A DNA stretch of 45,992 nt from Nitrospirota bacterium (GTDB lineage: Bacteria; Nitrospirota; Thermodesulfovibrionia; Thermodesulfovibrionales; Magnetobacteriaceae): contig JADFXG010000024.1 in NCBI GenBank assembly GCA_015233895.1, positions 1-45,992 of the forward strand, read 5' to 3'. The translations under genes and the position numbers were made by a program. The notes under the pieces are model-generated. The model was not told the DNA's origin. It did no database searches and worked only from the letters and a program-made list of their open reading frames with translations. Every line of letters begins with the position of its first letter. Within the stretch, counting starts at the first letter, position 1. Shown here piece after piece: positions 9,789 through 13,362 of this stretch.

Positions 9789-10721
9789 ATGGCTGACGTA
9801 GCTAATGAGGCAGAACTCTATGATGCGTGCAGGGTACTGTTTGGCACTGAAATAAAGGTTGACAGGAATTTCCTGGAGTACATCCAACCATCCGGGGTAA
9901 AGAGCGCATACAGAAAAATGGCACTTCTCACTCACCCCGACAGAGTGGCCGCACTGGGCAGTGATTACCTGAGAAATCTCAATGTGGATTTTCGGAGTGT
10001 TGCCGAGGCTTATGAAAAACTCAGCAAGTATTTAAAATTAAGAGAAAATGGCTACCAGTTAAGGGGTATTTATGCCTCAACAGCAGCTAACTACAATAGC
10101 AATTCATGGCAGTCAAGGGAGCGTGCAAGCACCACCACATCATCATCAGCAGGCAGCGGTAGCCGATACGGCAACACATGGCAAAACAAAAGCAGTCAAT
10201 TCGATACTCATGGCGGTTCTGCAACATCCTCAGCATCCAGCGAAAAGTATTCGTGGAATGCTAAGTCAACAGGGGATCGTTTCACTTTGGGCTCAAAAAA
10301 TTCTGCACACTTTTCGAATCAGTCACAAAACCAAAGCACCCTCCCACGAAGAGTGCTACGAATAGGTGAATACTTATACTACTCAGGACTGGTATCATGG
10401 AAAGACCTGATTGCAGCCATCGTGTGGCAGACAAAGCAGCGGCACAAGGTTGGTGAAATTGCCTCGCGGTGGGGTTGGCTTAGTGAGGATAAGATTTCAG
10501 AATTAGTAAGGGCCAGAAACAAAGGTGAAAAAATCGGAGAGGTCTTAGTTCGTCTTAAAATAATAACCCCGTTTCAATGTAATATGCTTCTTTGGCAGCA
10601 GCAAAAAAGCCAAAAACCTATCGGTGAATACTTTTTACAAGAGCACCTCTTAAAGGGCAATGATTTAAGTAAATATCTTAAATTTTTAAAAGACCATAAC
10701 TCTAATTTTAAAAAAGACTAA
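9789..10721 (+). CDS. J-domain protein with four C-terminal MshEN-like motifs
   Basis: Residues about 8-85 form a J domain with the HPD motif at H49-P50-D51 (LTHPDR), so it should stimulate an Hsp70 (DnaK) ATPase. A Ser/Asn-rich disordered linker follows (about 95-185). Residues 191-300 hold four tandem 24-residue motifs beginning R191, K220, K248 and P277, each with (I/V)GE at positions 2-4 and spaced by 4-5 residues. The first fits the MshEN/T2SS-E N-terminal pattern fully (R1, G3, L6, G10, L17, Q24). MshEN domains bind cyclic di-GMP. The stop codon overlaps the -35 box of a sigma28 promoter for the next gene. No strong ribosome binding site is seen at this start. The J domain is sure; c-di-GMP binding is inferred. 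Confidence 0.8.
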   Translation: MADVANEAELYDACRVLFGTEIKVDRNFLEYIQPSGVKSAYRKMALLTHPDRVAALGSDYLRNLNVDFRSVAEAYEKLSKYLKLRENGYQLRGIYASTAANYNSNSWQSRERASTTTSSSAGSGSRYGNTWQNKSSQFDTHGGSATSSASSEKYSWNAKSTGDRFTLGSKNSAHFSNQSQNQSTLPRRVLRIGEYLYYSGLVSWKDLIAAIVWQTKQRHKVGEIASRWGWLSEDKISELVRARNKGEKIGEVLVRLKIITPFQCNMLLWQQQKSQKPIGEYFLQEHLLKGNDLSKYLKFLKDHNSNFKKD

Positions 10722-10745
10722 AGTTTTATTAAAATTTGCCGATAA
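10719..10745 (+). promoter_or_regulatory. Consensus sigma28 (FliA) flagellar promoter
   Basis: The sequence TAAAGTTT, 11 bases, GCCGATAA matches the textbook sigma28 consensus at every position, with the exact spacer. The -35 box overlaps the TAA stop codon of the J-domain gene. Transcription would begin around 10752, giving a leader of about 70 bases before the start codon at 10821. The downstream gene should therefore be expressed with late flagellar and chemotaxis genes. Confidence 0.85.
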
Positions 10746-10820
10746 ATAGAGATAACAACGAAGCGGGTGAGTGAAAATATATTAAAATTCCTTAAAGCGA
10801 CATTTAATTAGGAGGTAAAT

Positions 10821-11591
10821 ATGTCAGTTGACAGCATTAGCGGTAGCATATCGTACACAAGTATCCAGATATCTATATCAGAGCAGAATTCCCAAAGTTC
10901 CCAAAGTTCTGGTGTTGCTCAAAATAATAGCAGTAATAACGGTAGTACAGCAGTGGGCGCAAGTCAGGGTGGTGGCAGCCAAATTCATGCCTTTATGCAG
11001 AGTATCATGCAGACTTTGCAACAGCTTGGAATCGTACCTCCTCCTGGCGGGCAGGGCACAGGCGCACCGGCAGGTGCACCAACCGGTACTCCAACTGCTA
11101 CACCGAACGCTCCACCGGCCAGTACGACGACAGGTACTCCGGTAGCCGATACAGACGGCGACCACGATGGCAGCAAATCCGGCCCAAGCAGTGGTAAGCA
11201 AGCTGTCCATGCTTTCATGCACAGCCTTTTTCAAGCCATTAAACAAGGCTCAATAGGCTCTCAATCGTCAACTACAGCTAATAGTAACACCAGCACAACT
11301 GCAAGCCCATTAAGTAACTACAGTGACCTTACAACAAAACTCCAGAGTCTTTTGCAGAGCCTTACATCTAACTCTACTGGAACAAACAGTGCCACGTCTG
11401 ATTTAAATAGCGCTTTCCAGAATCTGATAAAGACTTTTAATGGTAACGGCTCAGGAACAACAGACACTACATCAGGCAGTCAACCAACACTTCAGACGTT
11501 TTTGCAGACATTGATTCAGAATCTGACGGGCCAGCAGGGCTCCTCAGCTCCCATAGGTTCTGTAGGCAACATAGTTAACACTGCAACATAA
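10821..11591 (+). CDS. Low-complexity repeat protein under sigma28 control, unknown function
   Basis: The 256-residue protein has no Sec signal peptide; its first 50 residues are rich in Ser, Asn and Gln. Five short amphipathic segments of one pattern (about 55-69, 129-142, 170-181, 195-206 and 224-235; for example AFMQSIMQTLQQL and TFLQTLIQNLTG) are separated by Gly/Pro/Thr-rich linkers. A stretch with Asp at 110, 112, 114 and 116 resembles a calcium-binding EF-hand loop. A strong ribosome binding site (GGAGG) precedes the start, and a consensus sigma28 promoter lies upstream. The disordered Ser/Asn-rich N-terminus and promoter would suit a substrate of the flagellar export apparatus, but this is inference. 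I do not recognise a named family. Confidence 0.75.
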   Translation: MSVDSISGSISYTSIQISISEQNSQSSQSSGVAQNNSSNNGSTAVGASQGGGSQIHAFMQSIMQTLQQLGIVPPPGGQGTGAPAGAPTGTPTATPNAPPASTTTGTPVADTDGDHDGSKSGPSSGKQAVHAFMHSLFQAIKQGSIGSQSSTTANSNTSTTASPLSNYSDLTTKLQSLLQSLTSNSTGTNSATSDLNSAFQNLIKTFNGNGSGTTDTTSGSQPTLQTFLQTLIQNLTGQQGSSAPIGSVGNIVNTAT

Positions 11592-11616
11592 TTATTGTTA
11601 GTAACATAGTTTTTGA

Positions 11617-11651
11617 CCACAGATAGACATTGCGTTTATCTGTGGTTTATT
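11617..11651 (+). terminator. Hairpin terminator after the sigma28-controlled gene
   Basis: A stem of nine base pairs (CCACAGATA with TATCTGTGG) encloses an 11-base loop and is followed by tttatta. It lies 25 bp after the stop codon at 11591 and just before the stop of the convergent GmrSD-type gene, so it should end the plus-strand transcript. The T-run is short, so efficiency is uncertain. Confidence 0.55.
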
Positions 11652-13362
11652 ACTTTTCTTTTGATAACTCAGAAATCCGCCAAACTGCCGTAGCCTGCTG
11701 TGCAAGCCGCTTTTGCCTTGAAACAATCCGATCAGGTGTCCACTCCTTATTATCTAAGGCAATCCCTTTTGTAATTTCAAATTCGCTTTGTTCATAAAAT
11801 GTTCTCTTTTGCTGATATGACTTATTGCCGATGTCACGATTTGAACCTATTGTCCAAAGAGTCATATTCCCAATCCTATAGAGATAATTCTCCACTTGTT
11901 CATCCGTAAACTCCTGCCAGTTATCTTCAGGATTTTTTGGGAGAATATGCTCGACATTGTACTTATCACTGTTTTGATCGTAATCTTTACCCGAAACGTG
12001 TTTTTCGATTTCAAACAGAATATAGCGAACAACTTTTAAGTTTCGCGTAATGCGGAATTCTTTTTCAGTAAAAGCAGTGAGGAATTGCTCGTCTGATGGG
12101 TAAATAGAGCGTAAAGAATGGATTATGTCTTTAGCATTAATCAATTGCCCTTTTGAAATTTTTTCTGCTATAGCGTTATATACTCGTTCCTGTTCGTTTG
12201 GAGAAAGAGTGCCTATTACATTGTAACGAAACGAGGCAATAGTACACGCTCTGAGAATCCTTGTAAAATCGTCCTCGTTTAAAGCCTCAAGGGCAGCTAA
12301 CAACATGGAGTATGGTTGTTTCACATTGAACATTTTTAGTTGGCTTATGTACTTGCTCTGCTCTTTTGTCCACAAGGAGTTGTTGGCATCGCTTAAGGCT
12401 ATATAGATATCTGATTTATTATCCATTCTTCGTATTAATGTAAAAACGTCCGCTTTGTCTTTAATGTTTTTTCTGATAGTTTTAAAAAGCTCCGAGTGTC
12501 GTGTTAAGGGGTTATAGCTATTCCAAAAAACCCGAAGAAAATCGGGGACGCTTTCGCTGCCAAGCTTATCAACTATTATCTCCCAGAGATCCTCCAGCGA
12601 GCTGATTTCATTTTCATGGCTGCCTGAGCTGTCAACCACTGAAAATAGGTAGTTTTTTAACAAATCAGTAGCTGATAACCGCACACCCCGTGCATTTAGC
12701 GTCTCAAACACCGTAAAGGCATTTAGTTCATCTTTTACATAGATGAGTGTGAAAAAAAGACAGTCCGCTAATATATCAAGAAAACGAGCTAATTCAGCTC
12801 CGTCGGGATTTTTTTCGAATCGCTTATCAATCTTTTTGTCAAACCACTCAAAAGCTTTACGAAGTAATTGTTCCGAAGTCTTAAGTTTCCGATGGGGCAG
12901 TTTAACAAGAGGCACAATGTAGGTTTTATAAAATGTGTCATTGTGGCGATTAAGCTTTAATTTTGATTTTGAAACCAGTGTTACTGGGTCAAGGTATCCA
13001 ATGTAGGTACCTCTTAACGCATTAGCTCTGAGGTTATTGTTGTCTTCATCAATATTTTTCTTAATAAGGTTCTGAAGATTATTTAGTACGGCTAACACAA
13101 TTAGGCTCAAGGTAGTAATCCGCTGCTGACCGGCTATTATATTGTAGTTTTTATCGTCATTAGACTGTAACACCAGATAACCCATGTAATGGTTCTGCTC
13201 TCCATCTGGCACTACCGTTAGTAAAATATCCTGCCATAACTCATCCCATTCCACTTCTGTCCACGAGTAATCTCTCTGAAACCTTGGAACAGTATATACC
13301 AGACCGTTTCCCATTAGTTCTCTAAACGTTTTGGTTGATGTATTGAAATTAGTTACTGCCAT
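11650..13362 (-). CDS. GmrSD-type DUF262/DUF1524 restriction protein
   Basis: The 570-residue protein has an N-terminal DUF262 (ParB-like) domain with VPRFQRDYSW (about 25-34) and IIAGQQRITTLS (about 75-86). The C-terminus is a DUF1524 HNH-like nuclease domain: NVEHILPKNP with H472, then YRIGNMTLWTIGSN. This is the single-chain form of GmrSD, which uses a nucleotide to attack phage DNA carrying modified bases. A good ribosome binding site (GGAGG) precedes the start. It stands alone, between a convergent gene and the divergent mqnE. The core motifs look intact, so it is probably a working defence gene. Confidence 0.85.
   Translation of the reverse strand: MAVTNFNTSTKTFRELMGNGLVYTVPRFQRDYSWTEVEWDELWQDILLTVVPDGEQNHYMGYLVLQSNDDKNYNIIAGQQRITTLSLIVLAVLNNLQNLIKKNIDEDNNNLRANALRGTYIGYLDPVTLVSKSKLKLNRHNDTFYKTYIVPLVKLPHRKLKTSEQLLRKAFEWFDKKIDKRFEKNPDGAELARFLDILADCLFFTLIYVKDELNAFTVFETLNARGVRLSATDLLKNYLFSVVDSSGSHENEISSLEDLWEIIVDKLGSESVPDFLRVFWNSYNPLTRHSELFKTIRKNIKDKADVFTLIRRMDNKSDIYIALSDANNSLWTKEQSKYISQLKMFNVKQPYSMLLAALEALNEDDFTRILRACTIASFRYNVIGTLSPNEQERVYNAIAEKISKGQLINAKDIIHSLRSIYPSDEQFLTAFTEKEFRITRNLKVVRYILFEIEKHVSGKDYDQNSDKYNVEHILPKNPEDNWQEFTDEQVENYLYRIGNMTLWTIGSNRDIGNKSYQQKRTFYEQSEFEITKGIALDNKEWTPDRIVSRQKRLAQQATAVWRISELSKEK

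What the first reader, a model, noticed from the sequence alone, without database searches (positions are those of the whole stretch)
10719..11591. Unknown repeat protein driven by a consensus-perfect sigma28 (FliA) promoter
TAAAGTTT-N11-GCCGATAA at 10719-10745 matches the flagellar sigma28 consensus at every base with the exact spacer, 75 bp before a strong ribosome binding site. The gene it serves encodes 256 residues without a Sec signal, with a Ser/Asn/Gln-rich N-terminus, five repeated amphipathic segments and an Asp-rich EF-hand-like loop. It is not a recognised flagellin, chaperone or chemotaxis protein. It may be an undescribed late flagellar, adhesive or exported protein.
Basis: partly seen in the sequence, partly recalled or inferred. 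Interest (0 to 1): 0.75.

Follow-up and report, generated by a model that had tools for sequence, protein, structure and literature searches.

The report
Flagellum-controlled, probably secreted helical protein
A relative of magnetotactic bacteria switches on, together with its flagella, a gene for a previously unnamed protein that is cysteine-free, has a floppy start and five predicted helices, and is probably exported through the flagellum; the genetic switch is well supported, the protein's job is not known.

Summary
TAAAGTTT-N11-GCCGATAA at 10719-10745 is an exact sigma28 (FliA) box, one of only two in the 3.7 Mb genome; the other precedes a FlaG gene. The genome encodes FliA beside FlhF and FlhG. 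Relaxed copies precede flagellin and FlgM-FlgN in the genus. The box recurs before the orthologous gene in 10 of 12 Magnetobacteriaceae loci with different neighbours, so this is very probably a late flagellar gene. Its 256-residue product belongs to a family without an accepted Pfam, NCBIfam or PDB match, found in Magnetobacteriaceae and in 35 of 399 sampled genomes of the order of Roseateles (Burkholderiales). Members lack cysteine, mostly start MS[IV]xxI, have five predicted amphipathic helices and end in a conserved GNxVxT-like tail. Only H1 and H2 are clearly repeats of each other; the 'EF-hand' loop is not conserved. Most Burkholderiales copies lack a sigma28 box, and some flagellated Magnetobacteriaceae lack the gene: an accessory, not a core flagellar part. 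Best reading: a flagellar-type-III-exported accessory protein, similar in character (not shown in descent) to FspA or harpins. Export and function are inferred.

The parts
10719..10726 (+). sigma28 -35 element TAAAGTTT (its first three bases are also the TAA stop of the upstream ORF 9789-10721)
   Evidence: kept in orthologous loci, also in L008 where the upstream stop lies outside the box
10738..10745 (+). sigma28 -10 element GCCGATAA, 11-nt spacer
10752..10752 (+). predicted transcription start (about 7 nt after the -10; inference only)
   Evidence: inference from the usual sigma28 geometry
10810..10815 (+). ribosome binding site AGGAGG
   Evidence: purine-rich RBS present in all 12 loci
10821..11591 (+). 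gene for the 256-residue protein (stop included)
   Evidence: homologues; dN/dS 0.16-0.20
10821..10880 (+). conserved low-confidence N-terminus MSVDSISGSISYTSIQISIS, candidate flagellar export signal (inferred)
   Evidence: residues 1-43 pLDDT below 50
10977..11024 (+). amphipathic helix H1 (residues 53-68)
11148..11183 (+). Asp-rich segment DTDGDHDGSKSG (residues 110-121), not conserved in position
11187..11258 (+). amphipathic helix H2 (residues 123-146), repeat of H1
11307..11369 (+). amphipathic helix H3 (residues 163-183)
11388..11444 (+). amphipathic helix H4 (residues 190-208)
11490..11537 (+). helix H5 (residues 224-239), strongly conserved segment LQTFLQTLIQNL
   Evidence: its helical moment alone is not significant (p 0.22)
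11565..11588 (+). conserved C-terminal tail GNIVNTAT (GNxVxT-like in most members)
11615..11647 (+). intrinsic terminator hairpin; the transcript is probably monocistronic
   Evidence: 14 bp stem, T-rich tail; 0.9 expected by shuffling; -22.9 kcal/mol, z -5.4

Best explanation
A late (class III) flagellar gene. FliA-RNA polymerase reads the box at 10719-10745 once FlgM has been released on completion of the hook, giving a short monocistronic mRNA that ends at the hairpin 11615-11647. The product is a soluble, cysteine-free protein whose low-confidence, probably flexible Ser/Asn/Gln-rich N-terminus acts as a flagellar type III export signal. It leaves through the flagellar channel loosely folded and then forms a small helical bundle outside the cell or on the filament, as an accessory factor rather than a structural part. 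Shown by sequence: the box, FliA, conservation of the box and the frame, composition, predicted helices. Inferred: timing, export and extracellular site. Confidence that the gene belongs to the FliA regulon is about 0.92; that the product is exported by the flagellum, about 0.5.
For: Exact box: 2 in the genome, reversed-pattern control 0; the other precedes a FlaG gene. FliA 243.9 bits over a cut-off of 189.6, beside FlhF/FlhG-like ORFs. Relaxed box upstream of flagellin (L075, L030), FlgM-FlgN (L082), FlaG and several small Ser/Asn/Gln-rich ORFs in the genus. Box in 10 of 12 family loci with changed neighbours, its 16 bases invariant while the surroundings drift (p 0.02 against L008). No Cys in the 34 members counted; no Sec-like stretch in the window protein. 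N-terminal MS[IV]xxI and C-terminal GNxVxT kept to Burkholderiales. Another sigma28-driven small ORF starts MSVNSIGGG, like MSVDSISGS here (L078). In the sampled order 33 of 35 genomes with a homologue have FliA against 236 of 364 without, Fisher p 1.2e-4, not corrected for relatedness. Precedent: Campylobacter proteins leave by the flagellar export system with N-terminal signals (PMC2764114).
Against: No experiment. In 29 Burkholderiales loci the box is convincing only in L102 and L136, with part of it (GCCGATAG) in L107, so sigma28 control is not a family-wide trait. Two Magnetobacteriaceae loci (L010, L015) lack the box. Genera g2, g5, g6 and g7 have FliA but no detectable homologue, so the protein is dispensable for flagella. 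Lack of Cys and Ser/Gln richness also occur in intracellular low-complexity proteins. No flagellar or chaperone gene adjoins it.
Confidence: 0.5

Rival explanations
1. FliA-controlled but cytoplasmic: a small helical adaptor or stress/storage-like protein co-expressed with flagella, not exported.
For: Helices without a Sec signal; FliA regulons include cytoplasmic proteins (general knowledge); in this genus an actin-like gene also carries a sigma28-like box.
Against: Conserved motifs at both ends of an otherwise poorly ordered chain and complete absence of Cys in 34 members suggest an exported protein.
Confidence: 0.27
2. A filament- or surface-associated structural accessory (sheath, glycan-binding or surfactant-like protein) that stays on the flagellum.
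For: Late-gene control; amphipathic, little-charged helices with Ser/Thr/Asn/Gln linkers.
Against: No flagellin or hook-associated domain; no direct data.
Confidence: 0.15
3. The box is a chance match and the gene is read from another promoter.
For: Two overlapping sigma70-like hexamer pairs lie in the same AT-rich stretch; 5 such sites were found in the scanned region against 1.8 expected; most Burkholderiales homologues lack a box.
Against: Exact 16/16 box absent from all controls and conserved in 10 of 12 loci.
Confidence: 0.05
4. A calcium-binding (EF-hand or dockerin-like) protein.
For: Asp-rich DTDGDHDG segment; DxDGDxDG-like segments recur in many members, at different places.
Against: No helix before the loop, position not conserved, no Pfam EF-hand match.
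Confidence: 0.03

Closest known systems
FliA (sigma28) late flagellar regulon (flagellin, FlgM, FlaG)
   Same: Exact promoter, FliA encoded, same kind of box before flagellin, FlgM-FlgN and FlaG in the genus
   Different: The product matches no known regulon protein
Campylobacter flagellum-secreted non-flagellar proteins (FspA, Cj1242 type)
   Same: Flagellum-linked, N-terminal export region instead of a Sec signal (PMC2764114)
   Different: Export is shown there and only inferred here; no sequence relation was tested
Harpins
   Same: Cysteine-free, acidic, Gly-rich, helical; harpins are type III exported (PMC6945534)
   Different: No Pfam match to any named family; control here is flagellar; no plant link. 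Resemblance in character only, recalled as a lead
De novo binary-patterned helix bundles (Syn-F4-Link, WA20, S-824)
   Same: Best, marginal profile hits in the PDB (E 0.028 to 0.63): a simple polar/nonpolar helical pattern
   Different: No descent; this only says the core looks like a generic helix bundle

Membership tests
FliA (sigma28) regulon | -35 TAAAGTTT and -10 GCCGATAA with about 11 nt spacer | tested here: met
FliA (sigma28) regulon | FliA encoded in the same genome | tested here: met
   243.9 bits over cut-off 189.6, next to FlhF/FlhG-like ORFs
FliA (sigma28) regulon | Box conserved upstream of orthologues | tested here: met
   10 of 12 Magnetobacteriaceae loci
FliA (sigma28) regulon | FliA-dependent transcript | not testable with these tools
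   needs 5' mapping or RNA-seq
Flagellar type III exported protein | No Sec signal or transmembrane stretch | tested here: met
   maximum 15-residue hydropathy 0.79
Flagellar type III exported protein | Disordered N-terminus able to direct export | tested here: inconclusive
   residues 1-43 pLDDT below 50; export itself not testable
Flagellar type III exported protein | Found outside the cell depending on the flagellar export gate | not testable with these tools
   needs a secretome comparison
Flagellin / hook-associated proteins | Flagellin_N/C or other flagellar Pfam domain | tested here: not met
   no such match in the family
Harpins | Cysteine-free and acidic | tested here: met
   0 Cys, 9 acidic against 5 basic residues
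Harpins | Homology to a harpin family | tested here: inconclusive
   no match in Pfam or NCBIfam scans; no harpin sequence was fetched
EF-hand | Helix-loop-helix with a conserved 12-residue loop | tested here: not met
   no helix before the loop, loop absent or displaced in relatives
VWA domain | Score over Pfam gathering threshold | tested here: not met
   19.9 bits against cut-off 23.8; seen in 1 of 36 members

The most novel reading that the evidence does not exclude
An undescribed family of flagellum-exported, cysteine-free five-helix proteins shared by Magnetobacteriaceae and Burkholderiales: a non-structural cargo of the flagellar channel in free-living bacteria.
Probability: 0.4. Interest if true: 0.65.

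Novelty: new variant of a known kind. Interest (0 to 1): 0.5.

Why it matters
Proteins exported through the flagellum without being part of it are known mainly from pathogens (my own knowledge; example PMC2764114). A conserved, FliA-controlled family in environmental bacteria related to magnetotactic ones would widen that picture and give a testable, recognisable family (N-terminal MS[IV]xxI, five helices, GNxVxT tail) where databases have none. It also maps part of the FliA regulon of a mostly uncultured lineage.

Tried and rejected
Weak Pfam hits (VWA, Pex19, DUF1631, CDC37_N) are below their cut-offs or in very few members and disagree with one another: rejected as low-complexity noise. PDB sequence search: only AcrIIA6 at E 2 and designed helix bundles. 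The first AlphaFold model with 12 sequences was poor, pLDDT 44; the 36-sequence model reached 63. Foldseek against the PDB: no match with E at or below 0.001, best E 1.7; VIA-align best Z 4.0, not informative for helical bundles. Plasmid tblastn: none. PHROGs: none. Neighbours of ten Burkholderiales homologues, read by eye, showed no shared pattern. EF-hand reading rejected. A first repeat test failed on a division by zero and was rerun.

Full report
What was checked. The box TAAAGTTT-N11-GCCGATAA lies at 10719-10745 on the + strand, exact at all 16 positions; shuffles of the window give none. The whole genome (3,711,429 bases, 65 contigs) holds two exact copies with spacers of 10-12, and the reversed-pattern control none. 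The second copy, on contig C3, precedes an ORF with a FlaG domain (PF03646, E 3.4e-9). The gene follows 75 nt later, with RBS AGGAGG and ATG at 10821, and ends at 11591; a strong hairpin with a T-rich tail follows at 11615-11647.

Is FliA there? Yes: contig C21, 243.9 bits over a cut-off of 189.6, after ORFs that read as FlhF and FlhG (these two names are my reading of the sequences). With a relaxed pattern, four genomes of the genus give 36 sites against 13 for the reversed control, so single relaxed hits are not all real (in G001 alone it is 6 against 6). The meaningful ones have flagellar genes downstream: flagellin (L075; also L030 with a two-mismatch box), FlgM with FlgN behind it (L082), FlaG (L080, L086, L089) and several small Ser/Asn/Gln-rich ORFs.

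The family. A search of 60 relatives found homologues in 11 genomes, all in the family of the window; named records place this family with Candidatus Magnetominusculus, Nitrospirota. I infer from this, and from my knowledge of GTDB, that the family is Magnetobacteriaceae. Twelve proteins align, the others at 41 to 87 % identity to the window protein. In a sample of 296 genomes of the phylum only one genome outside that family has a match. All 19 genomes of the family have a FliA-type match, 18 over the cut-off, yet several lack the protein, so it is accessory.

The promoter in relatives. Ten of the twelve orthologous loci compared carry the box (12 to 16 of 16 matches, spacer 11 or 12) 37 to 82 nt before the start; L010 and L015 do not. 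The second copy of a tandem pair in G015 also lacks its own box. The upstream gene differs between L005/L007/L008 and the others. Against L008 all 16 bases of the box are unchanged, while only 42 of 57 aligned flanking bases are.

Beyond the phylum. A profile search of the order of Roseateles (Burkholderiales) found homologues in 35 of 399 genomes. They keep the N-terminal MS[IV]xxI in most members, an Asp-rich stretch in many, the helical segments and a GNxVxT-like end. FliA is present in 33 of the 35 against 269 of all 399, Fisher p 1.2e-4, uncorrected for kinship. In 29 such loci a box-like site stands out only in L102 (12/16, 83 nt before the start) and L136 (13/16); L107 shares GCCGATAG at the same distance as L102. 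So FliA control is firm in Magnetobacteriaceae and occasional elsewhere.

The protein. No cysteine in 34 members counted and few charged residues; in the Magnetobacteriaceae set 49 to 63 % Ser, Thr, Asn, Gln and Gly; no hydrophobic signal in the window protein. AlphaFold with 36 sequences gives five helices of good local confidence (about 90), a low-confidence N-terminus and tail, and a mean pLDDT of 63 with pTM 0.54, so the helices are credible and their packing is not established. H1 and H2 are repeats of one another; the others share mostly an amphipathic pattern. No accepted Pfam, NCBIfam, PHROGs or PDB relative, no convincing fold match.

Mechanism. I commit to a late flagellar gene whose product is exported by the flagellar type III system and acts outside the cell as an accessory. 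Steps shown by sequence: promoter, sigma factor, conservation, composition, predicted helices. Steps inferred: timing after FlgM release, export, site and effect. The comparison with FspA-like proteins (PMC2764114) and harpins (PMC6945534) is one of character, not descent.

Verdict. Observation confirmed, interpretation partly supported, function open. Flagellar genes are reported in all magnetotactic Nitrospirota genomes (PMC8353452); whether the window's organism makes magnetosomes was not tested.

Noticed in passing
L110 6939-9641 (G000 contig C5): A sigma28-like box (TAAAGTATCACTTGATTTTACCGATAA) 95 nt before a gene whose first 160 residues match Volactin (PF25216, E 3e-16), followed by a short receiver-like ORF and a MinD/FlhG-like ATPase; the same box and gene start occur in G002 (L079). 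Possibly a FliA-controlled cytoskeletal operon.
   Followed up: partly
L078, downstream of the box at G000:C2:130102-130128 (-); also L096: A 76-residue ORF with a sigma28-like box begins MSVNSIGGG, like the window protein's MSVDSISGS; no Pfam match.
   Followed up: partly
L032, L072, L081, L095: A 120-143 residue Ala/Asn/Gln-rich ORF directly after a sigma28-like box in all four genomes of the genus; no Pfam match for the window genome's copy.
   Followed up: partly
window 9789-10721: ORF with a weak DnaJ-domain match (E 7e-6, just under the cut-off) whose stop codon is part of the -35 element.
   Followed up: no
window 11650-13362 (-): GmrSD-type restriction endonuclease, N- and C-terminal Pfam domains, convergent with the gene studied.
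   Followed up: no
L012 1300-2656: Tandem pair of family members in G015; the second copy has no box of its own.
   Followed up: partly
L017 1316-1947: A family copy in G017 broken into two frames although it keeps a sigma28-like box.
   Followed up: no
L010, upstream of the family gene: Small ORF (MVAAAISGQANPYVAQQ..., His-rich middle) just upstream of a boxless family member.
   Followed up: no
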